Assembly (NCBI GenBank): GCA_013115145.1
Contig: JAAPAO010000115.1
Coordinates: 1-64,000, forward strand
Direction: 5' to 3'
Source of the DNA: Perkinsus chesapeaki
Taxonomy: Eukaryota > Perkinsozoa > Perkinsida > Perkinsidae
DNA length: 64,000 nucleotides
In this document: positions 22,042 to 64,000 of the stretch, piece after piece
Position numbering within the stretch: the first letter of the stretch is position 1
Layout of the letters: every line of letters starts with the position of its first letter
Made by a program: the position numbers and the translations under genes
Notes under the pieces: model-generated
What the model was told of the DNA's origin: nothing
The model's database searches: none
Seen by the model: only the letters and a program-made list of their open reading frames with translations

Positions 22042-25000
22042 CTATTGTTGGTATAGAAGCAGTCCAGTGTCTACGTGAATGGACGAACAGTCGAGTGCAT
22101 CAATCGCCTCAGCCAGAGCCTCATTCCGAGCAGCCGCTTCCGGATCTAAAAATAACATTACCAGGATTCGAACCCACGACCTTTCTTACTAACATCCTCG
22201 TTGTCGTTCCTCTCCTCCAAACTGGCCCGAGCAACTTCATGCCTGAACCTCACTCTCATGTTAAGTGCTGCCTTCGCCACCAACTCCATCATGGCCGTCT
22301 TGGTCGTCGGTGGATCCAAATAGTAAAGCCAAAACGATATAATACTCGCCTGTTGATTAACCGACGGTGCAATAACACTCTTGGGGACCTAACAAAAACC
22401 ACCACCATAATTTCCTGGCGCAGTGACTCTTCCTTCTCACCTCAGACAGCTTGATGACATGTTCCGAATGCAGCCTATGTAACAACATCTGACATTCTTC
22501 CCGATCAATCATGCATCGCTCCGCTATCCTAATCGTCTCTGATTTGTACCCAGTTGTCAACAAGTATTGATAGACTCGAGCTCCCACTACACCGTACCTA
22601 ATAATCGATCATCAGGGCGAGCGCTTTTTACAAATCCTCCTCCAATAGGCCTTCTTCTTACTTCTCGGTTAATATCGTATGGGTGAGCTCCTCAGTAAGC
22701 TTCGCTAAGACATTCTTCCAGTCAACTCTGTACGTAGCCGGTCCGGTCTGAACCGTCGCTGTTGCCACCGATGCTGCTGATGAACGTTTCGACGACCCTC
22801 GCCGCTTCGGAGCCGCGGCCAACTGAGGAGGGAGGAAACGGTTATGAAACGGTTAGATCGATTATGTAACGAATGGCGAACGGTTGAAGTCTTCGGGAAA
22901 ACTGGGCAACACTAAATCCACCGGAGAGATGCTTAGTGTTGATGTGTGTAATGCTAGGACTGAGCGGGTGTTATCAGACTTTCTAATGGGGAGAATAAAA
23001 CTGCGCGCCACGAAATTCTTACTGCAGCGGCAGCGGCTGCGTTTGTGCAGAGAACGAGGGCATCTTGATGCTTGCTGAAGACATTAAGATACTTGATGAG
23101 CTCATCACGTTGGCGATTCAGATGAGCTGACGCTGATGAACCTGCAAGACAGTATCCAAGCTCGAAGAATGCAAGATGCACATGAGGCCGCCATTACCGA
23201 TCCCGGAAGAAGCCGGGGATGATGGTGATGATGATGGCGTCTCGTGATTATGCGTCATCCAATCCAACAAATCATCGACTTGAAAAGTATCTAACACTCG
23301 AAAATGGCCAAACATGAATCGCTTCGCTCCGCCTCACCAGTAGTGCAATCAGTCAACTTTGTGTTTTCCACAGGTCCCATTGGAGGCTTCACCGATTCGT
23401 TAAGCATAACCTACAACAACCACTCACGCAGGTTCGATCCCGGCACCCCGCACTTGGAATATTTTCCCTGCTGCTGGATTCATTCTCTTAGCAACATACT
23501 CCACCGCCAGTTGCTTAACCAACATCATATCCAATGCCACTTGATTTAATCGCAACACCTGTATGGAAAATAATACTCTTACTGGACAACAGATGTGAGC
23601 CTCTCGAAATGCTGTTGAAGGTAATAATATAACTCTATCTATTAATCTCTTCAATAACACATTGCTCTATCGCCGAGCACGAATGGAAATATGGAAATGC
23701 AGTGAGAACCTCCACAAGAAGAAGAAGAAAGCTATACCATTTAAAACTGCCGTATACCATTTATACAGCCGATGGTGTACTGCTGTATGAGCCCCCAAAC
23801 CCCTTCCCCCTTACCCCTCCTCCTTCGATCTGCGTGGCATCAACTTTCTTCATAAGTCGTCTACTTCTCCCTGTCTGCCTACCTCTATTCCCTCGGCTAC
23901 CACCAGCGGCATCGGCAGCGGCTCTCTTGCGAGATCCGGCCTCGGCCTAAAGCAGGACATCATACAGGAGCAGTTATTATCAAGCATGATGAGAAATAAT
24001 GCAAACCGATCAGTGTTATACGGAGAATCAAACGACGTATTTACTATTTCTTGTAACTATCGGAGCATGTTCTCTTAAAGAGTTCCCAGCATCCGCATTT
24101 GCGACATCTCACGTATAGAACGGGGCTCAGCGCGGAGCAGTCCTGCCGCAAGACAGGACTCCACACATTAATATAATGGTTACACTTCTCCATCAAACGA
24201 GCCAATGTGAAACCTACCTTGGCTGCAGTGGCTTTCCTTCTTCTAGTTGTCGGAGCTGCTGCTGCCTCACCCGGCTGCTGTTCACCGGCTAACAACGCCA
24301 ACTCCGGAGACATCATTAACAGGTCATCAGCGGCGTCGATATCTGATATTATAAATATAAGTGTATTCCTGCTGTTCTATCTTTTGTCATGCATTGTAGT
24401 GCATCTGAAGATATGTTTAATTTCGCGGCTATCGAAAAGATGATATCGAATATATACTTGATAATAAGGTGGTCGTATTATTATTAATTATAATCATTGT
24501 CAATTCTAAATCAACAGCAGCAACAACACAGCAGAGGCAGGGGTTATGTACCCTGATCGCCCTGCAACACTGAGCCGTAGTTGTCTTCGTGACACTCGGA
24601 ATGACTCAAAGCTCCTCTCAGAGTGTTCTCTCGGGACATCGATGAACTTCGGTTACATTTCTTGTATTAACTGGATTTCCCTTCATCATTCATTCTAGTG
24701 ACATTACACTGCCTATCAGCACTTCCCAGCAGTTACACATTCAACGGAGCAATTGCTCATTAGAGGCGAATTCGTACACAATAACCATCCAAAGATATTA
24801 GCGGCGCGCGACTTTCCAGAGCATGGGGGGGGAGGAGCTCATCTTCGAATGCTCGAGAAAGCTTTTTATCGAAAATCTTGAAACGGTTACTCAAGCGTAT
24901 TGACGTTCGATGGTCTATCAGAAGCTGGGACTTTTCTGGACCAAACCGAAACACTGGGAGAGTAAAATTGCAAAGTAGATTTCATCGTCGATGTAGAACA

Positions 25001-26910
25001 TTACGTCACGAGCAACTGATGATGCCTTACCTTCCTCAGCTCCTCCTCCAATATCCGGTATCATCGGACTTTCCTCCTCCGGTGATGACAGTTCACCTCT
25101 ACTGCCTTCTGGCGTGCTGCTAGCCTCTACTGGTGTTGAAGGAGCTCTTGATGACTGCTGCTGCTGTTGTTGATCTGTGGCACGTAAACAAGGCTCGACT
25201 CTGTAAAGGACCTGAAAGAACATGCATCATCCTTAGACGCTTTGAGCTAGTAAAACTAAGAACCGCTATGATACCAAACAGGAAATGATGCTTGAATATT
25301 GCAGCAAGCAGCCACAAGCAGTGGTCGCCAATTCCACCGGTCTCATAGCTACATCGCCCCGGGCTCCATCTCAAATCAATCATTTCAAAGTCGATTATTC
25401 AACTTCAATCAGCTTGCCCAACAAACGCGAACTCACTGTTTGAGATAACCGAGATTGCAGCACCACGCATGTGCTGAATTAAGTCAATGTATATGAAGCC
25501 CGTTGGTTCATGTCAATAATCCCGCGCGCCACGATATTCTACGCCATCCAACGTGCGAAATGAATCAACACCGTACGGCTAAGCATGACTCACATTGCTG
25601 GTGACCAACTCGATGAGAGCTGCTTCGACATCAGCCTTGACTTCTCTCATAGGGGGGGCGTGCTCTCCGACATATTCTATAAAATAGCCATCATAACACC
25701 AGGGCACGAGAGCTACCTCGCCATCGAAGAGCTGCAAATTCGATCAAGTCATCCCATCCCACACGCCCCCGTCGGAGGACCTATCCAATGAAGCACATGA
25801 CGGCGACAGAAGGGGCGGCGCACTTTAGCTAAATGATAATTCATGTAACAGAAGCGCATAACAGATGTAGTGTATGTCTTATGACCAAGGGCTCGGAAGG
25901 AATCCATCAAATCAACAGAAAAGAACGACGAGGAGAGGCGAGCGGTAAGGATTCGTTCACGGTCGGAGTCGACGATTTCACTTGCTGCTGCTTGCGGGCT
26001 TCAACATCACTCGTGATCAACTCACCTCCGCCATGACATGAACTGCCACTGGCCGTCGGCGGCCCATCTGTTCTTGGACGAGATTCATATACTTCGGAAA
26101 ACGCATACGAGCAACAACGGCACTTGGAGAGGCGCTATACAACACCTACACAGGAGGATCGGGCTGGCGACTTGTGGATGATTTACCAAATGCTGCGGAG
26201 GTGCTCCTGATTTCTCTTGGCTGGGAACTTGGACTTGCTTCACCAAATGTGATACTGCGATATTGTGCTGGATAAGGATCATGAGAGCATCACGAATGCA
26301 CGACCAAGTCATCCTGTCTGAAAAGGTAACACATTACTGTTGGCGAGGGAGGATGCGATATTGTCGATAATGGATGGTAAATCGGCATGGATACTCCCCC
26401 CTGGCGAAAGCAATAATAATAGCGGCCCCCGAATCCACAGAACTTTCTTCAAATCTACCATGGGGAGTTTATAAATCTATCTCAAACCTCCTTGTTAATC
26501 TTCAAACATTCTACAACAGCAAGGATGCCAAAATTAAGTGTCCAAAAATAGCAATGTTAACTATTGAGCTTATCTTCATCATCATTCCCAATGAACTCAC
26601 TTGTGATCTCATGCATCGGATGGGGTACCTTAGCATCAGTCCGTAGATCTAGTGGCCAACTCAGATCTTCATTAACGTATTTGCTCAGTTCGGGGAACCT
26701 TAAACACAACTGAAATAACATCGACCAAGTTACTCCTCACCTCATCGGCCCTCTGGAAAGCAGGCAGCTGGCCACTGCCGACACCGCTGGCCCAAACTGG
26801 TCCGTAATAATATCACAGCAGAGCTTGTGGATGGCTGCCTGAGGCGCCTCGATCGCCGGGGCATTGAAAGGGGGCGGCCGGGATGTTGGGGCGGATGACG
26901 AGCCAACCAT
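22042..26910 (-). CDS. DNA-directed RNA polymerase III subunit RPC3 (RPC82/POLR3C)
   Basis: Multi-exon gene from ATG 26910 to TAG 22042. The first exon has IHKLCCDIITDQFGPAV and CLLSRGP, matching the RPC3 N-terminal winged helix. A second block reads RDALMILIQHNIAV (human LVQHNLV type). The middle has a basic linker (GSRKRAAADAAGG). Next come NQVALDMMLVKQLAVEYV and RMNPAAGKIFQVML, then GARVYQYLLTTGYKSE, IAERCMIDREECQMLL and LHSEHVIKLSEV (winged helix before the fork). It ends ALDCSSIHVDTGLLLYQQ, like the human KLDASEIQVDETIFLLE. RPC3 is part of the Pol III initiation subcomplex. Introns are 34-52 nt at the C-terminal end and several carry repeat motifs. Not every exon in 23.7-26.7 kb was resolved. 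Confidence 0.85.
22146..22189 (-). other. RPC3 last intron, tRNA T-arm-like family
   Basis: 44-nt intron GTAAGA...TTTTTAG containing GGTCGTGGGTTCGAATCC. Joining its flanks gives DNEDV|NPEAAARNEAL in frame with the conserved RPC3 C-terminus. Confidence 0.85.
22389..22440 (-). other. RPC3 intron, GGCGCG family (antisense)
   Basis: 52-nt intron GTGAGA...TTTGTTAG with TGCGCCAGGAAATTATG, nearly the same string as in HslU intron 3 (42726-42769). Confidence 0.8.
22598..22631 (-). other. RPC3 34-nt intron, twin of 61531-61564
   Basis: GTAAAA...TTATTAG with core GCGCTCGCCCTGATGATCGA. Removal gives LLEEDLYGVVGARVYQ in frame. The same length and almost the same core occur in an intron 39 kb away. Confidence 0.85.
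22983..23022 (-). other. RPC3 intron, GGCGCG family (sense)
   Basis: 40-nt intron GTAAGAATTTCGTGGCGCGC...CCCCATTAG. Removal keeps a frame QPLPLQ|KSDNTRSVLAL open. Confidence 0.75.
23291..23337 (-). other. RPC3 intron, GCGGAGCGAAGCG family
   Basis: 47-nt intron GTGAGGCGGAGCGAAGCG...GTGTTAG between exons coding KLTDCTTG and DTFQVDDLLDW. Confidence 0.8.
23411..23453 (-). other. RPC3 intron, tRNA T-arm-like family (antisense)
   Basis: 43-nt intron GTGCGG...TTGTAG containing GCCGGGATCGAACCTGCG, the reverse complement of the T-arm motif. Flanks join as NPAAGKIFQ|VMLNES, matching the RPC3 core. Confidence 0.8.
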
Positions 26911-27026
26911 AAGGAGGGAGAAAAAGCCAAGCCTGGGGTTCGAACCCACGACCGATCGGTCCCGAACACAACACCTTACCCAGTTAAAAAGGCTTAACAA
27001 TAATATATTAGAACTGTTATACTCCT

Positions 27027-30000
27027 TCACTCGAGGATGTCAAGAGCTGCCATAATCTCGGTAAGGTATTCCGGATAGTGATCATGTCTCTGTACCAGTT
27101 TACCGAGGTCAGCATTCTCAACGCCGGAGATCCCCCGTACTGGACTCAGCCCGGCCACTTTAACGCCCCACTCCATGTAGCGATAAAGGAAGCCAAGCAC
27201 CCAGTCACTTCCACAGTAACCATTGATGAATCTTCCGGACACTACTGCTCGAGCTCTGAAAGGGGTAAGTGGGAAGAGGCAGTCGTTGAGTCGTTGAATC
27301 TCAAATTCTACTAAGTAATACCCTCAAAAGTAACAGCCACAAAAACTTCATATGCTGAAGTGATTGGGATTCATTACATCCCCTCATAAGGACCAGTTCA
27401 CGAGTAGGGAGTGAGAAGGTAGACGATCGTTTGCCAGTCGTGGTATCAGCGGCGAGCTCACCTTCGCCAAGCTCTTTTGTGGTCGGAACCGACGGCAGGA
27501 GCATCGAATGTGATTGCTATCGGAGCTCCTAGCAGAACAACGTTCTGAACACTATTGAAATATCCTTTACTGTATCTGAAGGAAAGGGTATCTTAGGTTC
27601 AAGCAGGTAAGATCTCAATACGGTAAGGTTACGGACTTACAGAATCTCTAAACACTTGAACACAACTCGTGCCCCATTGCTAATGCCCACCAAAGTGACA
27701 GGGCGATTCCCCACGCAACTCGAGTCCATGATAGCAGATGCCAGCACTTCTCCAGCAACCGACGACCGATCACGTACAACCTAAAAATGTACTTGCATAG
27801 ATTCGAACCAGGGACCTTTCGCTTACCAGCCAGGTGTTATCCAGATCCGTCATGTATTTAATGATCCACACCGGGAACATTGCAGTTGCTGCTGCTGCGC
27901 CTATCGTCGCTTGTAGCCACATGCTCGCCGCCTGTTTCGCTATTTCATCAGTTATCAATCTACGAAGGACCTGGACATGTTAAGGTGGACATGGTATATC
28001 AAAAGGCAGCACTTTAGCAATACTCAACGGTACTGTACTACTTATCAACATTTTTACTACTAAAGACACATTTTACCACGACTTCCCGCCGCCACCGCCC
28101 TCGAAAGCATATTATTTCGAACACTAAGCTCTCCAGTCTCTGCTCCCGGTGACATCAGCACCTCCATAAATGTTGACAAAATAATCGCATTATTATCTTC
28201 CCCGCTCCCTTACACTGCCGAGCTTTATCAAATCACGACTTTCCCAATTAACAGCGTACACTTCACTCTGTCTGGTAGGATGACCATTAAATCGATTAAG
28301 ATTGTCGCCTCCCTCATTCTCATGGCTGGAGATATCTGGTTCGATCCACGGTAAGATTACATCTTCCCTGTCTCGAATCCATCTGAAGTACAAAAATATA
28401 GAAACATGAAACGCTTCGCTCCGCCTACCCTCCCACACAAAGTCGCAGCTCCAAAGCACCAGGATCATCAGCCTGTTGTCTATCATTCGCGGCCGGATCA
28501 CTTTCATTAAATCGTCTCCCCCAAGAATCGAACGCACGGCCTTTTGATTTCAAGATTGCACTTTCAGCATAGGCGTCTTTAAATTCAAACTCGTGGAGAT
28601 CCCCCCACCGCTTGTTCATCTTGAAACCCGTGAGACTTGCCCCACCAGCACCGAACAGCACAGCAACACCGGCAGTTCCGACTGCGGCCAGAAAACCACT
28701 GGCCGATATTATCAGCCCACCGACAGCTACACCAATCGTACCAAGGCCTCCTATAGCGGTGCCGATGCTCGCCAGACCTGGGTGAAATCATTATCGTATT
28801 TGGAGAGGACGGGTCAGATTAAGGTAAAGAGTAATTATTATCGCAAAGCTAATATAATAAGATATAAAAGAATAGCAACGCGGGACGGACTTCCTACCAG
28901 CCACTACAGCTGGCGCTGCTAGTCCTCCTGTTAGAGCTAGTAACGCTCCTCCTCCCACCGCTGCAGCACCGATTTTCAACCGCCTAGATAGGCGGGACCT
29001 GCAAAAGTACTGTACAATCAGATTCCTGCTACTCATTAAGGTCATTCATGCGTGGTACACGGATACGCTATCAGAAATAATACTACCAAAGCTGGTTTGG
29101 GAAATAATTGAAACCATCAACTTTGTTGAATTTAATTGAGCGAAATACTTCCAGAAAGAATCTCATAAAGCGGTAGATTTTTAATGCGCCTTCTATGAGT
29201 GAGAATGTCGACATACTTCACACGGCGCGTCGAGTTCTTACTGTTTGTTTTCTATCTTACTAACATATATCAGTTCAATTCCCTAAAGTGGTCGTCGATT
29301 ATATTTCATCACCGATAAACAAATTACTTATATCTCTGAAGTGAGCGTCAAAAGATCAACAACTCCGGCTGAGATTTTGAGAAGCTTCCTGGAAATTGAG
29401 GGCTTTTTACTGACCTTCAAACTGGGGTCAGTTCGGCGACTCTGGAAGTAAAGACGAAAAGCGATTCCATGTGCAAGCTGCACTGTGGAGTTCAGCATTG
29501 AACTAAGTTTAAGTGTCACGATTTCGGTTTAGAATTGCCCAAATCCTCCTTCTTCAAAATATATCGTTATTAACTGTGAACTCTAGTGTGGAGGTGTTCG
29601 GAGTACTAACACTTGCACTACTACACCTTAGTAACTACACGGTGTCTCGGAAAGGATGAGACTTTCTGAACAACCCATTAATGAGGCGAATATTTCGGCG
29701 ACACGTGTGGCGTTCAAAAGCTCTTAAGAGTGACTTCCTAATAGTGTTCGATCGAACATCGCCAATGGCGAGAGATCCAGATTTTAATACTCCGAAGAAT
29801 GGGTTATAATGGAAGATGTGAGACTGAGCCGTTTAATTATAGTGAGATTGGTACTGTAGTGTTGAATCAGTTCCGGCGGCGGCGGCGGTCCCAGAAACTT
29901 TGAGACACAAGAGACATCCTCTCTCACAATTTCAGCAAAAGTTGTGCGCAACCCAAAAAGTAAGTTGTAGTCCACATTTAACACTCATACCCATGCTACA

Positions 30001-31841
30001 GGGTGTTGCAAAGAGAATGGCTCACCGTCTGGGATTTGCTAACCCATGCGAATTTATTGGTAACACGGGTACCAATCGAAGGCTCTCGCCAAGGTCTTTC
30101 TACAGAGAAATGTGCTACATTTGGAATGTCACTATTTTTCGTTGTCTAAGGAGTCAAGTGAACCAGATGCAACATAGTTCCAGGATTTCAGGTGAATGTC
30201 AAGAAACTCCTTAAAGATCGGGAAAAGTGGAGAGAAAGGCAAGCTCGTGTGTTTCTTCTCTCGAAACACCTCTCCACTGTCCTGGCACGCCCTTCGAGGC
30301 CCTCGGCAATCACATCTTCTCACCTCAAGTAGTTTTGAACTACGCTGAAATTACAATATGCGGTGAGAACAGTCACTGTTCGCCCCCGAGCACAACGATT
30401 TCAATATCGGCACAAACTGCGTAAGTAAGCTCTCCTCTTTGAAGACGACGTATTAGCCCTATTATTGCCTACCCGCTGCTAGCCTTAACATGATCTACTC
30501 CGGGTTGTTGTTGTAGTCTACTCTCCTTTCTCTCTCCATCGGCCTGTTCACTTTTCCTTACCGCTTCAATTAATTCCAAACCAACATCACATTCCCATGC
30601 TTCAATGACATCAGATGGAAGCCCAAAGAGTTCCGCAAAATGGAATAGAACACATCTCGTCCCTGAAATAGAGTGACGTCCATAAAAATGGAAGACATTA
30701 ATCGATCATGAGGATGATATAATTCACATTGTTATACTTTATAAAACTCCTAATCTCCACAACAATTCGAGTTGAATAATTATTAATAAGCCAAATAAGT
30801 TTTAACCATCATTAAATTAATTGCTCAGCTTACAATTAATAATGCATGAGTCTAAAGTTCCACAGTTGAGCCCGAATCTTTTCGATAGCATTCCTAATAT
30901 CTTACGACTGTTGTATAAATGCTGCTGCGTCGCTCCGCCTTTTTTCGATTTCTTCTTTCCATTTTTATTTTTCTGCTTTTCTCCATCATTTTCTGATTCG
31001 TCCAATCCTCCTCCCAGAAGGTTCAACGTAAGGTCACGCAATACTAAAGATACCTGATTAGTTTCGTGGCGCGCGGTCATTATCTCGCTTAACCTGCTCA
31101 CTCACCCTCGACTTCCCTCCAAGTGACATCAAATGTGCCACAAACCCCTCGTACTGAGGAGGTGGTGATCGCCATTGCAACTGAAAATGGTGAACCAAAA
31201 TCGCTTCGCTCCGCTAAGGTTATCCACGCACCCCTCCAGGCAGATTCATTTCCAGTAGTTGCGTCAACGCTCTTCGACAAGGCTCATCGGCATCCAATAT
31301 ATTCAGAACAACCTGGAGAGTATCTTAAGGTTGAGCGGGGAAGATACGCAAAACGTCAACCTCACTTCTAAAGATCTTCTTGCCCATTGAACTATTGCCT
31401 TTCCAACCTTGGAGCCTCGGTATTTATGTCTTCCCCAAGATAATGATGGGGATGATCCGTTCGATGATGAGCCAGCAGTCCGAGTCGTTTCCTGAGCTTT
31501 GATCACATTTATTAAGGCATAGTGCCTTTGAAGAGCAAGCATGTCGAATAATATACATAGAATCCATTTATCATGAACCGAAACGGACAAGATGATGATG
31601 ATGACATCATCAACCTACACAATAATGTGATGCGGTTCATGAAACCGAAGAACCCGAACTCCTCACAGAAGGTTCGGTGACATTCTAACGTTTATCGACC
31701 ATCAGGAATGACCGAGAGACCATCTAACATTATTTCTAACCAAGTGTACAATTCTTCACCTTCAACCGGCATGTGGTAGATGATGAGCTCATTATCACTA
31801 CCACAAATACAGCAGCCGATGAGTTCTAACTCGTAACCCAT
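27027..31841 (-). CDS. TMCO4/DUF726-like transmembrane protein
   Basis: Multi-exon gene ending TAG/TGA at 27027. The C-terminal two thirds fit the DUF726 (TMCO4, yeast Mil1) pattern in order. A glycine-rich membrane segment comes first (GGGALLALTGGLAAPAVV), then GVAVLFGAGGASLTGFKM. VGGWIRDREDVILPW follows, then WLVVRDRSSVAGEVLAS. The alpha/beta-hydrolase nucleophile elbow is LVGISNGARVV (GxSxG). NVVLLGAPIAITFDAP, GRFINGYCGSDWVLGFLYR and VENADL..LV.RHDHY close the domain. These proteins are thought to be membrane-linked hydrolases; the substrate is unknown. The start at 31841 (MGYELELIGCCICGSD) and the N-terminal exons (NILDADEPCRRAL, LQWRSPPPQYEGFV) are my best chain and could belong to a separate gene. 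Confidence 0.75.
27781..27826 (-). other. TMCO4 intron, tRNA T-arm-like family
   Basis: 46-nt intron GTAAGC...ATTTTTAG with AGGTCCCTGGTTCGAATC. Removal joins DNTWL|VVRDRSSVAGEVLA, a conserved DUF726 stretch, so the junction is well fixed. Confidence 0.9.
28383..28428 (-). other. TMCO4 intron, GCGGAGCGAAGCG family
   Basis: 46-nt intron GTAGGCGGAGCGAAGCG...TACTTCAG. Removal gives LCVGGWIRDREDVILPW, conserved in the family. Confidence 0.9.
31054..31105 (-). other. Intron, GGCGCG family (antisense)
   Basis: 52-nt intron GTGAGTGAG...CTAATCAG with CGCGCGCCACGAAAC, between exons coding LMSLGGKSR and VSLVLRDLTLN. Confidence 0.75.
31181..31231 (-). other. Intron, GCGGAGCGAAGCG family
   Basis: 51-nt intron GTGCGT...CATTTTCAG with AGCGGAGCGAAGCGATT, between exons coding LLEMNLPGG and LQWRSPPPQYEGF. 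Confidence 0.75.
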
Positions 31842-32089: not shown

Positions 32090-33066
32090 GTCGATGGGCA
32101 GGAAGTTGACCTATTTTGTATCTTATTACATCTCCTATATCATCATCATCATCACTTTCATCACTTCCTTTACATTCCGTCCAATCAATCAGCCATCCTC
32201 TTGTCAAGTCGCTGACAATACATACCCATATACCCCCCAAACTCATCTTCATCTGATCAAGATTTAACGGAAATGTGGTATTATTTCAAACACGTCACCT
32301 TATTACATCACTTGAAAGCTCCCTCAGCATCTTGTTCCCCTCAAACGGTGTACTTTCATTTATCGATTTTGCTTCTTTGATAGCATCAACTCTGTTAGCC
32401 TTCAAGTCACGATATCTATTCGAAACATATATCACATTCCTTTTGGGGACAAATTAAAAAACAAAAAGGAATACGATACAGTGAATCATAACTTCGCGAG
32501 TTATTCACAAATTTCGTCGGGTTGCTCCGGGTACGGTAATTCAAGACATAAAAAGATCTCATTTTGACGACGACGACGCTTGAGAATGTAACCAGAACTC
32601 TAAGAGCTTCATACTATCAAATGTCATTAATTAATCCTATCTGCAGATCCAGATCGAACTCGACAGTTCCAAGGCACGCACTTGGTGTTAGCGAATGCTC
32701 CGCTCGCTCCACAATGCACCATTAACCTTTATCAATACGTATTCCAATCTATTACTTTTTTCTTGCTTCCTTAACGGCTATCTTGTGTGCCGATTCTGTC
32801 TCTTGTCGATTATTAGACGACACAACCGCCTCATTGCTCGACGATGTACCATATTCGTTCAATTTAGAGGTATCCCCCAATTTCGTATCCTGTAGAGGAA
32901 GGATCGGTATGAGTCCCTGCGTGATAGCGTACCTTCTCTTCCGCTCTACATTCGTCTTTTTCATCAACGCTCTCAAATTCAATTAATTGGGCATCTAAAA
33001 TGCCCCCGCTGGGATTCGAACCTGCGGCCTCCTCCTTTTGCCATGGATTACTTTCACCTCGACTCA
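32090..33066 (-). CDS. Unidentified multi-exon gene
   Basis: Starts at ATG 33066, 110 bp after the PLRG1 stop. Readable exons: MSRD|AQLIEFESVDEKDE; DTKLGDTSKLNEYGTS with NNRQETESAHKIAVKEA; NVIYVSNRYRDLKANRVD with NESTPFEGNKMLRELSSD; and MKMSLGGIWVCIVSDL with GWLIDWTECKGSDESDD, which ends in an acidic run near 32090. The protein is hydrophilic and charged with no visible catalytic motif. I do not recognise it. It could also be the 5' part of the gene annotated at 27027-31841. The first intron carries the tRNA T-arm-like motif. Confidence 0.5.
32995..33057 (-). other. Intron, tRNA T-arm-like family
   Basis: 63-nt intron GTGAAAG...GGGCATTTTAG with GCAGGTTCGAATCCCAGC just after the ATG of the unidentified gene. 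Its 3' end matches that of the intron at 61429-61469. Confidence 0.75.
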
Positions 33067-33175
33067 TCGCAACCAAGTAAACAACATACAATCAAAAACA
33101 CTAAATGCCCTCCAAATACTGTACTAAAACACCGCGCGCCACGAAATTAGAGACGTTCTTATCATCATTGTTCCT

Positions 33176-41505: not shown

Positions 41506-44500
41506 ATGGCATTGATAGCATATCATGGACATATCCGTACCATTATAAGGGGGGCTATTAGAGGGTTCTGTAATGAAGGAAATGTCGGTATGAACCATTT
41601 ACCGAAGGATAGGAAAAATATGAAACCAAAGGAGATGGTCGACTATTTGGACCGGTAATAATAAGGGATATAAAACAACAGCCAAGGTTGGCTTGTTGCC
41701 AATTAAGAAGTTTTGTCCGATTATTATTGAATCCTCATCACCGTCATCCTTTACCATGTCTTTCGGAGCTTCGGACTAGTCCAGCCATTATCAATTGATT
41801 ACTCTTCATTACATCTCTGGCGAACTTGGGCAGCATTCACTGAAGACACTTTCCCACGTTCGTTGCCGAGGGGAGGGAATCATTCGAGCTTCCAGTGGAA
41901 AAGTATTTCATTTTTTTCACTAAAACATATTAACTATCAAACGTCCGTATCACCACTAGTATTCGAGGGACACATCCCTTGTGCATGAATCAACCTTAGA
42001 TACGTTATTGGTCAAGCTGACGCCAAAAGGGCGGTCGCGAATGCATTGCGAAACAGGTGGAGGAGGCAACAGTTGGATGAAGAGCTTCGGGCTGAGATAA
42101 TGCCGAGGAACATGTTAATGGTAATAATACAGGCAGGAGCTGATCAAGGATATAATAGTAAATGCTTTCATCGATCTGATAATATTAGATTGTTATTATT
42201 CAATCTCTTTAACGTAGATCACCCATTGATGATCTTCAATCATGTCTATCCTAATAATAGTGTGAATACCAAACTGAGTGTGTTATCGTCGCTATGTTTC
42301 CTGATTATATAGGAAGTTATCTTGGTTCAAAATCTCCAGGGCTTCCTAGAGGTCAGTGAGCTTTGCTGGCCGCCGCAAGATATTAAGGAAGGATACGATA
42401 CCAGCTCACTGGGGGAGCAGCCTAGGAAAACAACGAACCGTTCATGGTGGAGGGAAAATTGGGCCGAAAATGGCCTTATCAGGAGGCAATCAGGCCCTCA
42501 AAAAGTATGTTCGGTCAACATCTCCGTCGAGTGCAAAAATGAAGCGATTGTGAATGATGCTGCTGCGGTGATGCTGTATGGTACTATTCTCTTACACTCT
42601 AAGACGTTATTGCTGGGTTTTATATGACTTGTTCAATGGGTCTGGTTCAGGTGGGGCCGACAGGAGTCGGAAAAACGGAGATCGCGAGGAGGTTAGCGAA
42701 GCTTGTTGATGCTCCTTTCATAAAGGTGAGAACCAATTCTAGCGCGCCAGGAAATTATGAGTGAAATAGGTGGAAGCGACAAAGTTTACGGAGGTTGGAT
42801 TTCATGGACGGGATGTTGATTCAATAATCAGAGATTTATTGGAGATGGCTATGACTCGCCAGAGGTACTAAACTTGACCTAATTTGTATCTTTCCCGCTT
42901 CAAAGTAAGATATCATTTTCTTAGATCACGACTAGAGGACGAATTGAGACCGAAGGCTACAGAAGCAGCTGAGGAGCAGATATTGAATGCATTAATTGGT
43001 ATAACTTTTGGGGAATAATATCGATCGCGTGATCGATTTGGTCTCAGGTCCCATGTCCGCTCAGTCAGATAAGGAGACATGGCTTGCTCATTTGCGAGCT
43101 AAGCTTTTGGATGATCGGTAGTAATAATAATGATAGAGTGCTGTATGGATTGAATTATAAAGTTACACTCAGAAGAATAGCACTTTCTATCTCAAGAATT
43201 TCGTATTTCGAAAATGACTATATAAACTGAGAATTCCTACGAACTAAGTTATAAGTGAAATACAGTTCCTTTCTTGTCGAGATATAAAGTGTAAGCCTTC
43301 GGTGGTGTTCGGATATTATTCATATCACCAAAGACTATATTTGTTTTAATGGTCTTTAACAGACATGAATACTTTATTAAAGATAATTGTATTATCAGGC
43401 AAATAAAAGTTGAAGTGCCAGTGTCTGATAATGACCTTTATCCTGAGTGGGTAGGCGGAGGGTCAGATTCGAGGAAACCACCGCAAATAAGAGTTATACA
43501 GGTAGTGGCTAGAGGTGTCAGGAAACTGCTTGAGTGTCTCTAAGATGATTGCATAAATGCGAAGCGGTGACATTCCTTTATATCGGTCTTAGAAACTATT
43601 AGTCGCTGCTTCACTTTAAGAAGTAGCAAGTTGTTCCTAACATTGACAATTGATGGGCGAATTAAGTGGCATTAATTATTTGTTAATTATTGCCAATAAT
43701 ATTACCTTAAGTATTACCATCATCACCATCTCTCTTCATCGAGGTGCCCGTCGCCGGTGGAGGATCAAATCGTCAAATGGAAAAGAGAACAATGACAGTA
43801 GCTGAAGCTCGACAGAAATTAGTGCAGGTGAGATCAATTTCGTGGCGCGTGACCCATGAGGTGATAGTAGCAGTTCATCTAGGTACACTTGGATAGGATG
43901 ATTGATTCTGATATGATTTTGGCGTCGGCGATTCGATCGACGGAACAAGAAGGAATTGTTTTTGTGGATGAAATTGATAAAATTTGCAATTCGTCCAAGT
44001 GGGCTAATTTCGTGGCGCGTGAGAAAAGAGGTCTTATGGCAGGGGATTTTACCATGGAAGCGATGCCTCATCCGAAGGAGTACAACGAGATTTGCTGCCG
44101 ATCCTCGAGGGTTCTGATGTTAGCACAAAGTAAGGCGGAGCGAAGCGATTCACGAATACCGATTTTGTTAGGCACGGCAATGTTAATACCGATCATATAT
44201 TATTTATATGCTCCGGAGCATTTCATTCTGTAAAGCCTGGCGACATGCTGGCCGAACTTCAGGTAGGTAAAGATACTCAATGCGGACTCATAGGAAGGAT
44301 AATTCTCTAGAGTTCTATCCTCATAAAACTGCTCGACTTTTTATAGTATTTCGGACGACATATTTTTCCGACAGCGTCACGTACACCGGAGCTTCGATTG
44401 TTCTAGCTTCTGTATCTTCTCGAGTGATTGTTGTCAATTTAAGAAATAATGATAGTCATAATGATATTATTATAATATTGAATATTAGTAATCTTTGGTT

Positions 44501-45944: not shown

Positions 45945-45947
45945 GAT

Positions 45948-56441: not shown

Positions 56442-57554
56442 ATGCTCGATTACAGGCTAATGATTACTGCCATTTATTCGGCAAGCATGAGCAGTATGGT
56501 GTATCCGGTATGCAGTCAGATATCTTTGCCTTTCAGCGATAATAAAGTGGCTGGGATGGCCTTCGATGGTCAGCCATTGGACTTATATCTCGACTCGGGC
56601 CAGAGTGGAACTTATGTTATATATAAGGAGTTTTATGAGAAGACCTATGGTAGATGTCCGCCCAAGACGTGCTATACTTGCATCAAAAAGTGCCATCCCT
56701 ACAGTGAGAAAAAGTTCATCTTAAAGTTTGATGATGGCAGTGCAATCACAACTGTCCATCATTATGGTGTTGTAGAACTCGCAGGTCATAAGCTAGAGAT
56801 GGAATTCGGAGTTATTATAGGATGGTCTCCAAGTCCGAAGTTCCCGACTGAGAGACCTCTGAACTACTTGGGGCTTGAATACCATCGTGTTGCATCTGGT
56901 GAGAACATTATGATACAGCTGTTCCTGAAGAAGATTATATCCGAGAAAAGGGTATCGATATGTGTATCTAGCGATGCTAAAACCTTCACTGGTGAGGTTA
57001 TACTCGGCGCATTCAAAGAGAAGCAGTGTCCAACCACCTCCCCCAAAATAGTGCTTCCGGTAAAATCATCCGGATACTTCGATACGGCACTCCTGTCACT
57101 TGGCTTGGTGAGTCCCAAAGGCAAATCTTCCATAAAGCATTTGCCCGATGGTATAGCGGTCTATGATACAGGAACATATTGCATTGTTCTACCTGAGCCA
57201 TACTTCGAGTTTGTATTGAATACGATTACCCAAATTGTCAAGCAAGCTTCAGGCCTGGACGTTCGAGTTGAAATAAAAGATGGTTTATGGTACATTGAAC
57301 AGAGAGGATATGACTACCTTCCTAGGCTGGCATTTGTCGTCGGTGATCCCGAGAACCACAGAACTATATATATCCCGCCCAGGCACTATACGAAGGACTG
57401 TGATGGCACTTGGTGTATTCTTCTACTACTACAGCACAACTTCGCCGAAATACTACTTGGTCGTCCAGTTTTTACGACTTACTTTTCTTCATTCGTAGAA
57501 AATAAGGAAGGTCAGAGAACGGCAACATTAGCTACTTACAACAGAGGTGAATAG
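56442..57554 (+). CDS. Pepsin-like aspartic protease (family A1)
   Basis: Intronless, 370 residues, starting at an ATG with a hydrophobic N-terminus (MITAIYSASMSSMVYPV) that can act as signal peptide. Both active-site aspartates are present: Asp51 in LYLDSGQSGTYV and Asp242 in AVYDTGTYCIVLP. The first loop is DSG instead of the more usual DTG. The flap tyrosine region is less clear. The domain ends with EILLGRPVFTTYF, matching the pepsin pattern ILGD.F...Y. Cysteine-rich loop at residues 70-85 (RCPPKTCYTC..KC). No long propeptide is visible before the first motif. Likely secreted or in a vacuole. Confidence 0.88.
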   Translation: MLDYRLMITAIYSASMSSMVYPVCSQISLPFSDNKVAGMAFDGQPLDLYLDSGQSGTYVIYKEFYEKTYGRCPPKTCYTCIKKCHPYSEKKFILKFDDGSAITTVHHYGVVELAGHKLEMEFGVIIGWSPSPKFPTERPLNYLGLEYHRVASGENIMIQLFLKKIISEKRVSICVSSDAKTFTGEVILGAFKEKQCPTTSPKIVLPVKSSGYFDTALLSLGLVSPKGKSSIKHLPDGIAVYDTGTYCIVLPEPYFEFVLNTITQIVKQASGLDVRVEIKDGLWYIEQRGYDYLPRLAFVVGDPENHRTIYIPPRHYTKDCDGTWCILLLLQHNFAEILLGRPVFTTYFSSFVENKEGQRTATLATYNRGE

Positions 57555-57723
57555 TAATGATCAAATATCATCCATGTTTTCAGTCATTTTTATTGGCTTT
57601 GTCATGAGACAGCGTTGGGTTATAAATTCAACTTGTCATACGACCTGTGGTTACACGCAAAAGCAATTTTTATCCGTCTAACGAAACTACTCTGGAGGTC
57701 GCAAACAAAAACCTCGACAACTT

Positions 57724-57724
57724 C

Positions 57725-57755
<31 letters not shown>
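57724..57755. repeat. CAA microsatellite
   Basis: Uninterrupted run of CAA triplets, about ten units. Confidence 0.95.
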
Positions 57756-58468
57756 TTCGGCGTGATTATTGTCTGTCGCAGTAGAAATACTGCAAGCCGG
57801 CCACTACTGTATACCAGGACCTTCTGCTCTGACGATGATGTGTAACTTTAACCTGGCCGTACTGTATGGTCGTCCATACACTCCCTATCTGGTGCGCTGT
57901 TAATGACAGCCTGTTATATGGAGCTTTGAGAGAGAATAGTATTCTCGGAATACTATTAGTTAACATTCCAAGATCATCCGGCATTGCACCTCCGACAAAC
58001 TCTCTGATAGCTTTTCTGGGCCATCTTGACTCAGTGGTGGAGCACATTCTCGAAGCTATCATCAATCGTGTTTCCGATTTATAACTTCGATAACGTAATA
58101 ACATAATATAACAATGGGAGTATGTTTGACAGGTACACTCATAAGGCTTCAGAGGAGCTGACACAGAGATCAAACCGAGCGACTAATCATTTATAACGGC
58201 GATCGAATGTGAACTATTGGGAGGTTTCCGATGAGAACCCACTCGCCGTTCGGTAAGTAATAGTCAGTACTATTTATCTAGACGAGCAATCAAGTAACTG
58301 GTACATTTGAGAGTTGGTACTCAGAGTTGTCGTGGATAATCCATGTAGGACCTCACCTAGAGCGTAAGAGCATTGCTCTAGACGACTGATGTCGCCTGAA
58401 ATTCGCCATTTACCTGGGACGGTTCCGGTTGAGCACGACTAGCTAAACAAACGATTAGTAGCAATTTG

Positions 58469-58521
58469 CTTGAACGGTGAACCTTAATTTGCTACTAGCA
58501 AATGAAGGTTTACCGTTCAAG
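58469..58521. repeat. Inverted repeat with 17-bp arms
   Basis: Arms CTTGAACGGTGAACCTT and AAGGTTTACCGTTCAAG pair with one mismatch. The 19-base spacer itself contains TTTGCTACTAGCAAA, a palindrome. The nested structure could be a tiny mobile element end or a binding site. Confidence 0.8.
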
Positions 58522-59279
58522 TCATCAAAAGGCCTTCAAAACTGTTCAGGTTTACATGTAATAGTTGCATCGAATAAGCTCAACTGGGCTAATTAGGGCA
58601 CTATTCAACCAATGTTGACTGATTCAGCAAGGTTAATAAGTTAGAGTCGAAACGTGATCATTGTTCAAAATTGAGTCGATGCCATGTCATTCAAAAGTCT
58701 GATACTATTACACCATTACTTCCACTAACAATGATAATCTTTACTCATGTGTATATATGTTCTTCAGTGTGTTCGATCTTGGTATTCCAAAATGAAAAAC
58801 AACTTAATAATTTCATCAACTTTGGGACTAGAACATGAAACTTTCGATGTCATGAAAGGATGGTACGTCCTAAGCATTAGAAAACATTTCATGTCTATTG
58901 TCATAATCGATCACGAACCGTTTACATAGTTAGGGCGAGCAAGATCTTTTACACCTCTGCGCGCTGTCCAGTATGCGTATCCAGTGGATACTGTCCAATT
59001 CGCTCTGCGCACATACATGTATTAAGATGAACCATTCCTCCTACCGAATCAGCTGAATTCTCGTACAGAATCTGGTCAATGACCGCTGAAAGTGCGCTTG
59101 GCACTTCCAGAGAGGGAAAAAAGCCAATGAAGTTCCACAACACGCACTGAGGCTGTCATCGGGCAACTCAAGCACGAAATACGCTCTTCACTCGAGAGGC
59201 CCCAAGAGTCTCGAAGCCACAGCATGGCTGAGCGGTGTCAATGACGAGCCGTATCGGGTAAAATAGGTGATTCCGTGGA

Positions 59280-59706: not shown

Positions 59707-62700
59707 TTAATCGAACTTCCTTTGGAGCACCTCTACCGACTCTATCGCATCGATAAGTACGAGGACCCCGAGGAATATTAATCCTGTTGCCCAAGTCAAT
59801 ATTCCGACTCTGCTCGATTCATTTGCAGAATAATACTGCCGCAGTAACTATACGATACTTTCACTGATGAACTTCGAAGATTTGACGAGAAGATGGAAAG
59901 GACTTTTTGCCGACGTTTTGATTTGACAATGTCCATGAATGGGCAAGACCGACTTACTTTCCCTCCCCAAGTGCTGTCATATTTCTCCATCGCAGCTTTA
60001 TTGGCCATTTCAAGATTCAATTTCTCTTCTTCGGCTTCCCGCCTGACCTGTTGGAGCACTTCCTCCTTTCGACCTACTCGGCCAAAATGCAATTGAAATC
60101 ATATCTTAGCGGAGCGAAGCCTACCGAGGAACATTGCCTCATCCATGGCTGCTTTCTTCGCCAGCAATTGGGCTTTCATCTGATCGAACAGTTTAAATAA
60201 GGTGAATATTAAATCAATTAATTTCGGGGCAATTTCCACAATTCCATTCTGGGTTTTTCGCCCGTCAGTTCAGCTGAATGAGACCTCCGGCGAGAGAGGC
60301 GTACCTCTACATCGATAATGTCTCAGCCAGTTGGAGCGAAGGCCAGAATTGATCACGAATCCTCAAACGTGTCAGGTTTTTAAGATCCTATCCTACGGTA
60401 ACTCGACTTACAAATTCTACGACCGGAACGACTGAGAAGGCCATACAACGACAGCTCGGAAACGACATCGGCTTTTAGCGTTCATTCGCATTTAACGAGA
60501 TTCCAACGTGCCATATGATAGTCGTCAACCGGCTTACCGGATGCATCCCCATTTTAATATTCTCTCTCGTCTTCTTCTTCCATAAGGCTTGGAACTGGAC
60601 ACCTTTGGTTTGCTTCAACTGCAACGCTGCATACTTCTGAGCAGCACTCCTGGCCGACTCTGGACTCTCGCCCGACGCTGTCAATTTCTAAACAAAAAAA
60701 GCTCCACAACACATGCAGGTTTGACGAGATCCATCACAGTTCGACAAGCTGCTCTGCACACATTTGAATATCTTCACCAAGCATTATCCCATCGAACCCA
60801 AGTCCTACCGCCCCCACTTACTGCCGCATATTTCTCAGTCAGGGCCTCAAAATGCTTCCGGAAGGTCTCCCGGGCCCTTTGCTCCGATCGATAGTGAACT
60901 TCACATTCATCAAACGCAGCTCCAATGTCGATGCACTCCCCCCCTTTTCGGAACTTCACATTTTTAACTTTGTCCTTTATCGATCCAAACAGTTGTGTTA
61001 AAACCTAAGCAGTGCGAAAGATACTCCACCATACTCCGATAACCGAGGGATCATCAGAGATTCTGCTGATTGTTATTATAAGCCTCTTACGACCACATTT
61101 TAATTTAGAGGGGTCTCCAAGAAAAGCGTTGAGGAACTGCAAGATTGCAAGATTTCAAGACCTACTGGTGTCATTTCCTTCGGCATCCGTCCTCCGACAT
61201 TCTTATTAGCCCTAACTCCAAACCACCGTGTGCCCTAAGAACCCAAGTCCCAGGTTCGATCCCGGCCTCCCGCATTTTGATCATACCTCCACTGATCCCA
61301 ATTTCTGCTTCACCATCACCAACAATGCCACACTAGGATTCCCATTATCTTCGCAAATCTTCGTTCCACCGATTTCCGCGCCAAAACTTTTCGGTTTAGT
61401 TGTTAAACCGGCAAGATCAATCCCATACCTAAAATGCCCTAGCCGGGATTCGAACCCACGACCACTTACCCCTTCGGATAAAATCCAATACTTCTGAAGT
61501 GCCTCAATTTATATTGCTAATAAATAACAACTGTAATCGATCATCCGGGCGAGCGCTTTCTTACATCCGAGCACGTAGCCGACACCACGAGACCCTTCAC
61601 TTTGTCCGGCAATCGATGCAGTTCGACGCTCAAGATTGATAAGCTTGACTTTGGTAAAACTTTCAATCGGATGGCCGACTTGTATAATTGTGGATCCACT
61701 TTATTCACTTTTCCCTGAAGACATGAAAATTTCTCAAATCTCCATGGAGCTCCTCCTCCTCCTGATGATGATGGTGGTGGCGACTCAGAATCCGACATTT
61801 CTCAATGTGGATTTATTCTGCTTATTTATGGAAAATACTTTCAGTGTAACTTTCACTTTATTCAGTGTTTATTCTCGTCAAAGTTATCATACACTCAAAG
61901 ATAGAGCATGCCAAACACCACCGTTTATTATTCACCAAAGCGTATTTGATCAAACACTATTACCAGTACAGTTCGAGCCTATACAACCGACGGGCAGTTT
62001 ATTAAATACCAGTATCGGTATCGACCCAGGCATCTGCCGCGGACAAGGACGGGAAACCATCGGAATTTCAGCTAATATTGCATCGCTGAAACCTGAACTC
62101 GCCACGTTGCATGTTTCATGCATCTCGGAAATCTTATGATGAATTTATTGAACTCAAACAGCGGACATGCCCGAAAATCGGCATCGCTCCGCCCCCCCAC
62201 TCACGATTGCTTTTCCACTGCCATCATAGGCCTCGCAGTTCAGCGTCACGGCGGCCGGCACAGGTCTTCCTAATTCATCCTCTTTATCCCCCCGACCGAT
62301 TGGCCAATACTTAAGATGGATGTCAACCTGATGAAAGCGAATAGAGCTCGATGATCCGGTCAGATTGAGGAGTCGAAGATGTTCCCCATGTCACAAATGC
62401 AACCACAGTAAAGAGGGCAATGAAGATTCCCGTGGGGGAATTTCACCAAGTCGGATTTGGCAAATCCCTGCCGCCTTTTACGTTCCACAAATATCTACCG
62501 AGAAACGCAGACATCTCGTGAAAAGCGTTTTTTCAGCACGAGCAAGACCTGCATGATCCCACACGAAACCCAATCGGATCCGAGAAGGGCCAAGAAGAAA
62601 ATTGACACGCTCAGGAAGAAATGTGAGCCCGTGAATGCTGAAAACCGAGCATTTTTCAAGTGTGTAATTCATTCCCATTCAACCTCACCTGCCGCTTCTT

Positions 62701-64000
62701 GGCATCCAATCTCGGCCCGGTGAAAACGTCCAAGGTGTCCGCTGGTAGCCCGAAGTATCTTGAGGTTGACCTTGCACTTTTCAACCCCGAAAGATACTCT
62801 ACTTACGCCATTGTATCTCCTACTAGCTTATCGACTATACCAACTTCATCATCAACAATTTGCAACTCTGAAGAGCCCTCGGCAATACTGTGCCTACATT
62901 TAGCGCGCGCCCCGCTGATCGATTTGGCATCCCACCAGTGGCTTACTCAGACAGGACAGGCTTTCTTCCCTCACCGGGCTGATCCCAACTAACCTTCGCG
63001 TAGCTGAGTAGCAAGCTATCATAATCGATCACGTGATCGATTATTCTTACCCTGGTCCTTTGAACACTCTATACCCTTCTTCGTTCCCTTGCAGATCAGC
63101 AAAGCCAACAACTTCACCGGGTTCTGTCGGAACTGATAGAAAAACCGTGAACTCGTAAAAGAAAAATTTTACGAGTTTTACGTAAATTAGCAGGAGCCTC
63201 TCAGCCTCCCCGAGAACAGTACTCATATAATTATCGACTTCAGATTTACCAGGGAGAATAATTAAAAAATTTTGACGGAAATTTTTGCCAAAAATTCCTC
63301 TCCATGGCAAATTTTCGGCACTTAACTGAAGAAGCCCGAACTATAGTAGATTCGATGCCCCTCTTCTCACCCGGCAAATCCTCTTCATCAGAATTCTTGC
63401 CAGGTTCAAAAAACCCAACCCGCGGACGAACGCGCGCGTGCACGTAGACATTGTGACATGTCAACTTGGAGCGCTCGTTGGAATCAAGTCCGAATCTGGA
63501 AAGATACTTCTGTCATATATTGCCCAGTGCGATGTTGTACAATTTCAGGCCTTCCTCAAGAGCTTGCTCCGCCATTTTACCGGTCGCTCGAACCTAACCG
63601 CAAAACAACTGGACTTGTGGGCGGTGCTGGTGATATATGTTTACATTCAGCGACTCATAACGATTGGCAAGTGACTGCTAAAGTACGGCCAAATGAAGAT
63701 TGAGCACCTCAGGAAAGTATCTTTACGTAAAAAAAATTTATGCAGTTTTCATACCTGCCGTATCAATCGTAATCAAGGCAGGAATTCGCCACGAATTAAA
63801 TCTTGAAACCTATTCGTCAGATTTTTGGGGTATCCTTTTCATAGCCCAATTTTGCACAATCGATTTACTAGTATAAATTTTGGGAAAATTTTCCCAAATT
63901 TTCCCAGATTTTCCCAAATTTTCCGGAATATTTTTTTTTCTTACCGCTTCCTCCGCCTTCCCAATAATTCTCTGAATGACGCCATCCTCACCTTGGAACC
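59707..64000 (-). CDS. Multi-exon coiled-coil protein with C-terminal membrane segment (5' end outside window)
   Basis: 3' part of a long gene. Exons read, from the right edge: FQGEDGVIQRIIGKAEEA; FLSVPTEPGEVVGFADLQGN; DDEVGIVDKLVGDTMA; YFGLPADTLDVFTGPRLD; PVPAAVTLNCEAYDGSGKAI; PQLYKSAIRLKVLPKSS; then charged helices (AFDECEVHYRSEQRARETF, SARSAAQKYAALQLKQTKG, LLAKKAAMDEAMFLGRKEEV, VRREAEEEKLNLEMANKAA). The last exon holds a membrane helix (ILTWATGLIFLGVLVLI) and stops at 59707. The helices suggest a BAR-like or other coiled coil ahead of a tail anchor, but I do not recognise the family. Introns are 34-52 nt and several carry repeat motifs. Exon order in 61.8-62.9 kb is uncertain. Confidence 0.6.
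60074..60124 (-). other. Intron, GCGGAGCGAAGCG family (antisense)
   Basis: 51-nt intron GTAGGCTTCGCTCCGCTAAG..GAGTAG, the motif in reverse complement. Removal joins MDEAMFLG|RKEEVLQQV. Confidence 0.8.
61235..61286 (-). other. Intron, tRNA T-arm-like family (antisense)
   Basis: 52-nt intron GTATGATC..GGTTCTTAG with GCCGGGATCGAACCTGGG, resembling the RPC3 intron at 23411-23453. Confidence 0.7.
61429..61469 (-). other. Intron, tRNA T-arm-like family
   Basis: 41-nt intron GTAAGTGGTCGTGGG..GGGCATTTTAG containing GGGTTCGAATCCCGGC. Nearly the whole intron is the repeat. Confidence 0.75.
61531..61564 (-). other. 34-nt intron, twin of 22598-22631
   Basis: GTAAGA..GATTACAG with core GCGCTCGCCCGGATGATCGA; same length as the RPC3 twin and one mismatch in the 20-base core. 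Confidence 0.8.
63016..63050 (-). other. 35-nt intron made of a palindrome
   Basis: GTAAGAATAATCGATC..GATTATGATAG. The centre AATCGATCACGTGATCGATT is a perfect palindrome, so almost the whole intron is self-complementary. Confidence 0.75.
63152..63175. repeat. Hairpin
   Basis: 9-bp arms CTCGTAAAA and TTTTACGAG with a 6-base A-rich loop, apparently inside an intron of the large gene. Confidence 0.7.
63875..63924. repeat. AAATTTTCCC short tandem repeats
   Basis: Four to five imperfect copies of AAATTTTCCC, the first as its reverse complement GGGAAAATTT, in an AT-rich intron. Confidence 0.75.

What the first reader, a model, noticed from the sequence alone, without database searches (positions are those of the whole stretch)
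22042..64000. Introns of unrelated genes share internal repeat motifs: an introner-like system
At least 20 introns of 34-63 nt in RPC3, the TMCO4-like gene, HslU, the 60-kb gene and the uL3 leader carry one of about four motifs: GCGGAGCGAAGCG, AATTTCGTGGCGCG, a tRNA T-arm-like string, or GCGCTCGCCC/GATCGATTA. Three of the families occur in both orientations relative to the host gene. Many junctions are fixed by protein conservation. Introns normally diverge fast, so shared sequence across non-homologous genes points to multiplication of intron-generating elements. Introners are established in some green algae, stramenopiles and dinoflagellates; I do not know whether this set has been described.
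Basis: partly seen in the sequence, partly recalled or inferred. Interest (0 to 1): 0.92.

Follow-up and report, generated by a model that had tools for sequence, protein, structure and literature searches.

The report
Tiny repeat families inside protist introns
Short introns of unrelated genes in this single-celled organism, probably a relative of dinoflagellates, share a few tiny repeated sequences that appear to have been copied around the genome in both orientations, which looks like new introns being made by very small mobile elements, although splicing and movement have not been tested.

Summary
The window belongs to a 35.4-Mb genome, probably of a perkinsid (spliced leader). The motifs recur genome-wide, reversed-pattern controls being 0: F1 GCGGAGCGAAGCG 410, F2 AATTTCGTGGCGCG 274, F3 B-box-like 125 (some are tRNA genes), F4a palindrome 62, F4b 84. 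Eleven motif introns of 42-64 nt were traced in HslU, RPC3 and DUF726; ten junctions lie inside homology matches. F2 is sense in two and antisense in two. Similarity covers only 17-34 bp and ends sharply; identical F4b words and a 34-35-bp F1 stretch recurring at 97% and 94% indicate copying. No terminal inverted repeats and no target duplication beyond a possible GT. About half the copies had no good intron candidate. Best reading: introner-like elements of minimal size. Not shown: splicing, movement, empty sites. Rivals: insertion into older introns (open for F2), selected DNA motifs, tRNA origin of F3. Withdrawn: F1 core invariance, a sampling artefact.

The parts
22146..22189 (-). RPC3 intron, 44 nt, F3 in sense
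   Evidence: removal restores the frame; outside the Pfam match
22389..22440 (-). RPC3 intron, 52 nt, F2 antisense (2 mismatches)
   Evidence: junction after residue 76, inside the POLR3C_WHD match 18-80
22598..22661 (-). RPC3 intron, 64 nt, F4b antisense
   Evidence: junction at residue 24, inside the POLR3C_WHD match 18-80
27781..27826 (-). DUF726 intron, 46 nt, degenerate F3 in sense
   Evidence: inside the DUF726 match 2-347
28383..28428 (-). DUF726 intron, 46 nt, F1 in sense
   Evidence: inside the DUF726 match
28501..28561 (-). DUF726 intron, 61 nt, doubtful F3-like stretch in sense
   Evidence: inside the DUF726 match; motif assigned by eye
42726..42769 (+). HslU intron, 44 nt, F2 antisense (1 mismatch)
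   Evidence: PFIK|VEATKF aligned to PDB HslU
42999..43047 (+). HslU intron, 49 nt, F4a variant
   Evidence: LIG|PMS near the end of aligned domain 1
43828..43882 (+). HslU intron, 55 nt, F2 in sense
   Evidence: KLVQ|VHLD inside aligned domain 2, weakly similar there
43999..44042 (+). HslU intron, 44 nt, F2 in sense
   Evidence: NSSK|GFYHG aligned with a 2-residue gap
44130..44171 (+). HslU intron, 42 nt, F1 in sense, filling most of the intron
   Evidence: STK|HGNV aligned; 34-35 bp of it recur on C161 (97%) and C9 (94%)
23004..23017 (-). F2 core
   Evidence: intron not homology-checked
23320..23332 (-). F1 core, candidate intron
23431..23441 (+). F3 core, candidate intron antisense to it
25525..25538 (-). 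F2 core, 1 mismatch
26936..26947 (.). F3 palindromic core
31060..31073 (+). F2 core, 1 mismatch, candidate intron antisense to it
31202..31214 (-). F1 core, candidate intron
33012..33022 (-). F3 core
33135..33148 (-). F2 core
60109..60121 (+). F1 core, 1 mismatch, apparently antisense to a minus-strand gene
   Evidence: frame read by eye only
61253..61263 (+). F3 core, candidate intron antisense to it
61446..61456 (-). F3 core, candidate intron in sense
61536..61556 (+). F4b core, candidate intron antisense to it
62903..62923 (-). F4b core
63023..63042 (.). F4a palindrome, candidate intron

Best explanation
At least four families of very short repeats (conserved part: F2 about 17 bp, F4a 22 bp, F3 about 30 bp, F1 about 33 bp, F4b about 34 bp) have multiplied in the nuclear genome of what is probably a perkinsid. 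In the conserved genes traced here each copy makes up a large part of a short GT-AG intron, so insertion of such an element most likely created the intron: introner-like intron gain. Because F2 sits in either orientation, the splice sites cannot all be carried by the element. They are probably supplied partly by the element (the two traced F1 introns have the core 4-5 nt after the start of the 5' splice site and a T-run before the AG) and partly by the target, often a GT left on both sides. Shown: repetition, sharp ends, presence in introns, both orientations for F2. Supported but not proven: copying by descent. Inferred: insertion as the origin of the introns, mobilisation in trans by an unknown enzyme, splicing.
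For: Genome-wide counts with zero reversed controls. Homology-supported introns. Removing a GT-AG segment around the core leaves 90+90 nt open on at least one strand for F1 21 of 46, F2 22 of 52, F3 15 of 29 (tRNA genes and double counts removed), F4a 7 of 17, F4b 4 of 8, against 0.116 at random places (per strand). Conservation ends abruptly. Of 84 F4b words, 90 pairs are identical in five free columns against 42.5 +/- 7.1, maximum 77 in 2000 shuffles. 34-35 bp of the HslU F1 intron recur at 97% and 94% on two other contigs. Columns inside the element vary together, flanks do not: F1 5.65 against 3.55 +/- 0.35 (34 filtered copies), F2 3.60 against 2.65 +/- 0.19, F3 without tRNA genes 11.35 against 5.28 +/- 0.55. 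Families cluster with each other: 22 of 224 within 300 bp of another family, null mean 2.6. For F1, F3 and F4b the traced introns leave only about 9-31 nt outside the element. Exon 2 begins with GT in 20 of 67 motif candidates (one copy counted twice) against 51 of 410 controls, and in 6 of 11 traced motif introns against 0 of 4 others.
Against: No terminal inverted repeats (0 of 11 with 8 nt or more). No target duplication beyond GT. Copies without a good intron candidate: F1 20 of 46, F2 26 of 52, F3 17 of 36, F4a 6 of 17, F4b 4 of 8 (that F3 set held tRNA genes). A coding-score version of the test did not separate copies from random places. The linkage could come in part from mixing true copies with unrelated matches, and identical words in part from duplicated genes. 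The regions read were chosen around exact F1 and F2 copies. For F2 an older short intron is possible. Some positions vary freely between fixed ones, as in protein-binding sites. No RNA-seq, sister genome or empty site was available.
Confidence: 0.55

Rival explanations
1. Secondary insertion: the elements are short mobile repeats that land in many places but survive mainly inside introns that already existed; they did not create them.
For: The similarity covers a minor part of the F2 introns. In F1 sense candidates the 5' splice site lies 4 to 27 nt from the core. About half the copies have no clear intron candidate.
Against: Traced motif introns (42-64 nt) are about as long as the four motif-free short HslU introns (48, 54, 60, 84 nt); subtracting a 30-34-bp element leaves about 9-31 nt. 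Two long stretches of the window outside the intron-rich genes hold almost no copies at stringency.
Confidence: 0.17
2. Selected cis-elements: the motifs are binding sites (F3 B-box-like, F4a for a dimeric factor) kept in introns by selection, without mobility as the cause of their spread.
For: Fixed positions alternate with free ones: F4b ATCGATYA-NNN-GGGCG-N-GCGC, F3 with four rather free positions. F4a and F4b share the half-site ATCGATYA. F2 orientation is indifferent.
Against: Identical F4b words beyond chance and near-identical 34-35-bp F1 stretches point to copying. The F1 core decays: 410 exact and 552 one-mismatch matches, reversed control 46 at up to one mismatch. Location mainly in introns is not expected of regulatory sites.
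Confidence: 0.16
3. RNA-level intron transposition (reverse splicing of spliced introns into other transcripts, then reverse transcription).
For: No target duplications or inverted repeats, as discussed for fungal introners (PMC9860276, section 4 read). The genome has at least 56 RVT_1 matches.
Against: It predicts sense copies with intact intron ends; F2 is antisense in two introns inside homology matches (one copy with 2 mismatches), and similarity does not reach the splice sites.
Confidence: 0.04
4. F3 alone (not exclusive of the others): these introns derive from 3' ends of tRNA genes or other Pol III transcripts (T-arm, acceptor strand, discriminator A, T-run).
For: The core equals a B-box; length and order match tRNA positions 48-73 plus a T-run (tRNA numbering recalled). 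Genuine tRNA genes match: 4 of the 38 F3 copies lie in called tRNA genes, and the strict pattern hits a tRNA-Arg gene on C23 with the same GGTATTTT end.
Against: Without the tRNA genes no covariation at three T-stem pairs: 12, 22 and 14 of 31 paired, shuffled 12.9, 19.7, 12.9. Nothing conserved upstream of position -6.
Confidence: 0.15

Closest known systems
Introners of the survey by Gozashti et al. 2022 (PMC9860276; abstract, section 4 and methods section 15 read)
   Same: Similar introns in non-paralogous genes, many copies per family, opposite orientations considered, some families without target duplications or inverted repeats, median lengths from 30 nt.
   Different: That survey required BLAST E-values of 1e-5 and similarity beginning within ten intronic bases of both splice sites; many copies here would probably not pass. 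The text held does not contain the word Perkinsus; its supplement was not seen.
Introner elements of Amoebophrya (PMC7789003; passages read)
   Same: Repeated introns in a relative of dinoflagellates with a small genome.
   Different: Those were defined among non-canonical introns with 8-20-nt inverted repeats and 3-5-nt direct repeats; here 0 of 11 introns have such inverted repeats, and all 11 were traced as GT-AG.
MITEs and Helitron-type non-autonomous elements
   Same: Short, non-coding; Helitron-like proteins exist in this genome (4 matches).
   Different: No inverted repeats or target duplications found; no fixed Helitron-type end seen by eye in F1. Far shorter than known MITEs (recalled).

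Membership tests
Introner | Similar sequence in introns of non-homologous genes, at least four introns per family | tested here: met
   F2 in 4 traced introns of HslU and RPC3; F1, F3 and F4 in 2-3 traced introns each plus open-frame candidates elsewhere
Introner | Similarity reaches near both splice boundaries | tested here: not met
   Conserved part is 17-34 bp with unconserved flanks; some F1 sense introns come close
Introner | Copies related by descent, not by gene duplication | tested here: inconclusive
   Identical F4b words and recurring F1 stretch, linked columns with unlinked flanks; mixing of unrelated matches and gene duplication not fully excluded
Introner | Orthologous sites lack the intron in relatives | not testable with these tools
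   No other Perkinsus genome held; no second copy of HslU found
Introner | Spliced in RNA | not testable with these tools
   No RNA-seq; only frame and homology
DNA-transposon introner or MITE | Terminal inverted repeats | tested here: not met
   (11 introns); F4a is an internal palindrome
DNA-transposon introner or MITE | Target site duplication of 3-9 bp | tested here: not met
   only a GT excess
Amoebophrya introner element | Inverted repeats of 8-20 nt and non-canonical splice sites | tested here: not met
tRNA-derived SINE (for F3) | A-box and B-box promoter plus 3' tail | tested here: not met
   B-box-like core and T-run only; nothing conserved upstream of position -6

The most novel reading that the evidence does not exclude
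A class of minimal introners: elements little more than one recognition site (17-34 bp, some built of interchangeable half-sites such as ATCGATYA), mobilised in trans, inserting next to GT in either orientation and drawing splice sites from target plus element. Their similarity is too short and too internal for published introner screens, so intron gain by this route would be undercounted in other lineages too.
Probability: 0.3. Interest if true: 0.8.

Novelty: new variant of a known kind. Interest (0 to 1): 0.62.

Why it matters
Where new introns come from is an old open question. If these elements make introns, one small protist genome holds several hundred to over a thousand candidates (955 matches by the exact patterns, some F3 ones being tRNA genes), and empty sites in sister species would date and dissect each gain. 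It would also show that introners can be too short for current searches. Under the rival readings too, 17-34-bp repeat families without inverted repeats or longer target duplications need an explanation.

Tried and rejected
Ab initio gene finding found few introns; its coding model was trained on a few tens of kb of mostly intron-poor frames. The coding-score test built on it did not separate copies from controls: at threshold 6, F1 2 of 46, F2 0 of 52, F3 3 of 36, F4a 1 of 17, F4b 0 of 8, control 0.033.

F1 core invariance: in the regions read there were 27 exact and 2 one-mismatch copies, but I had chosen those regions around exact hits. Genome-wide there are 962 at up to one mismatch (control 46), of which 410 exact. 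Withdrawn.

F3 sets: on checking, 4 of the 38 F3 copies are tRNA genes, including the pair on C23 that I had taken for a duplicated element; two palindromic copies were counted twice. F3 figures come from the set that includes them; one search repeats the open-frame and linkage tests without them.

Target duplications: longest common word and fixed offsets gave nothing. Inverted repeats: nothing. F1 20-mer in viral contigs: 0. Rfam on 9 sources: 2 tRNAs only. PDB search of the RPC3 piece: nothing, so that gene rests on POLR3C_WHD at 35.8 bits. Likeness of F1 to the spliced-leader RNA loci: none by eye.

Papers: the listings show no paper on introners in Perkinsus; only the Amoebophrya paper holds both words. 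Subscription papers and supplements were not searched. The Perkinsus draft-genome paper (Bogema 2021) was seen only as a reference.
Full report
WHAT IT IS IN. The window is contig C19 of a 35,393,606-bp assembly in 884 contigs. The spliced leader CCGTAGCCATCTTGGCTCAAG occurs 8 times (pattern recalled). Perkinsozoa leaders share an ACCGTAGCCA pattern with one variation and an AAG end (PMC9399869, passages). Among solved structures uL3 is closest to entry 5xxb (that this is Toxoplasma is recalled). A perkinsid is therefore likely; Perkinsus chesapeaki would fit by size, but that size is recalled, not checked.

THE FAMILIES. An unsupervised 11-mer count over 164 kb (window plus ten 10-kb stretches chosen around known F1 and F2 copies) put words of F1, F2, F3 and F4a on top; F4b was not among them. 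Profiles of 49, 53, 37, 17 and 8 copies show: F1 gGCGGAGCGAAGCGaTTcatGttt..c..TTTt; F2 AATTTCGTGGCGCGtga; F3 C..gGGTTCGAtcCCcgg....ggcATTTt; F4a AAATCGATCACGTGATCGATTT; F4b AAATCGATcA..cGGGCGaGCGCTTTTTac. Outside these stretches conservation falls to about background. Copies were picked by their core, so core conservation itself is not evidence. The F3 set held four tRNA genes and two double counts.

GENOME-WIDE COUNTS. F1 205+205 exact, 482+480 at up to one mismatch, control 24+22; F2 128+146; F3 pattern 66+59, at least one of them a tRNA gene; F4a 62; F4b 43+41. Exact-pattern controls are 0. From 410 exact and about 506 one-mismatch copies (552 minus the control) I estimate roughly 9% change per F1 core site and on the order of 1,300 F1 copies, assuming equal rates per site.

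INTRON LOCATION. HslU, spliced by me, matches PDB HslU with 405 bits in two domains that include five motif introns (coordinates). The DUF726 protein matches over residues 2-347 with 214.7 bits, a range with three motif introns, one of them doubtful as to motif. The RPC3 C-terminal part matches POLR3C_WHD at 35.8 bits over two motif introns; a third RPC3 intron only restores the frame. Motif-free HslU introns exist: 48, 54, 60 and 84 nt, plus long ones read by eye. For the wider sample the open-frame test gives 21 of 46, 22 of 52, 15 of 29, 7 of 17 and 4 of 8 for F1, F2, F3, F4a and F4b against 0.116 at random places; about half the copies lack a good candidate. Copies of different families lie close together: 22 of 224 within 300 bp of another family against 2.6 expected (contigs up to C105, lengths partly assumed). 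In the window at stringency they avoid 45,001-59,000 and, apart from a tRNA gene and one F3, 1-22,000. That F3 (21975) lies at the edge of a predicted coding exon, the only hit inside the 11,778 bp of better-scoring predicted exons.

COPYING. Of 84 F4b words, 90 pairs agree in all five free columns against 42.5 +/- 7.1; of 87 F3 words that were printed out of 125, 9 pairs against 1.7 (some are tRNA genes). A stretch of the HslU F1 intron recurs on C161 (97% over 34 bp) and C9 (94% over 35 bp). Inside the element, columns vary together: F1 5.65 against 3.55 +/- 0.35 (34 copies kept by a TT filter), F2 3.60 against 2.65 +/- 0.19, F3 without tRNA genes 11.35 against 5.28 +/- 0.55. Flanks show none (F1 and F2, F3). 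Mixed sets can inflate this measure, so I rest the case mainly on the F4b words and the F1 stretch.

MECHANISM. F2 lies sense and antisense to the host gene in introns inside homology matches, so copying is at DNA level or orientation is lost on insertion. No inverted repeats and no target duplication beyond GT were found. Exon 2 starts with GT in 6 of 11 traced motif introns against 0 of 4 motif-free ones, and in 20 of 67 candidates against 51 of 410 controls, Fisher P 6e-4, background 5.9% (its input held the tRNA genes, and one palindromic copy counts twice). The simplest model: an element of 17-34 bp plus a few extra bases inserts next to a GT, one GT becoming the 5' splice site; the AG comes from the element's T-rich end or from the extra bases. 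The enzyme is unknown. Helitron-like (4 matches) and reverse-transcriptase (56 matches) genes exist; nothing links them to the elements.

COMPARISON. The survey of 3,325 genomes asks for similarity near both splice sites and a BLAST E-value of 1e-5 and reports 175 genomes with introners; the text held does not name Perkinsus. Amoebophrya introners differ in structure. An earlier study gave introns of 39-1622 bp, most under 100 bp, in P. marinus (PMC3101222, passages), without mention of repeats in the passages I saw.

VERDICT. The pattern is real and unusual. It works like an introner system; membership is not claimed, because similarity near both splice sites was tested and not met, and intron gain could not be tested.

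Noticed in passing
C1:52/85, C100:1262/1305, C59:22252/22313, C74:33030/33091 (L075:3031/3092) of the own genome: F1 cores in same-strand pairs 33, 43, 61 and 61 bp apart among the first 100 listed copies, closer than expected for scattered copies; perhaps tandem copies.
   Followed up: partly
C59:13446-13672 and C216:12220-12446: An F4b copy followed by an F4a copy at the same 207-bp spacing on two contigs; perhaps a duplicated gene with two such introns.
   Followed up: no
window 41290-41335: F2-like and F3-like cores (2 mismatches each) side by side just upstream of the single-exon uL3 gene, possibly a 5' leader intron.
   Followed up: no
window near 27600 and other places in the 164-kb set: Further recurring words TCAACCTAAGATACC (7 copies of its seed) and the palindromic TGCACGCATGCGCA (6 copies of its seed); possible further families.
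   Followed up: no
window about 46110-46232: About three tandem copies of a 40-bp unit (ctttttaagccattagatataggcactttgtgtgccacag), seen.
   Followed up: no
L045:225-297 and 2650-2722 (C23): Two tRNA-Arg (cct) genes 2.4 kb apart whose 3' ends look like F3.
   Followed up: partly
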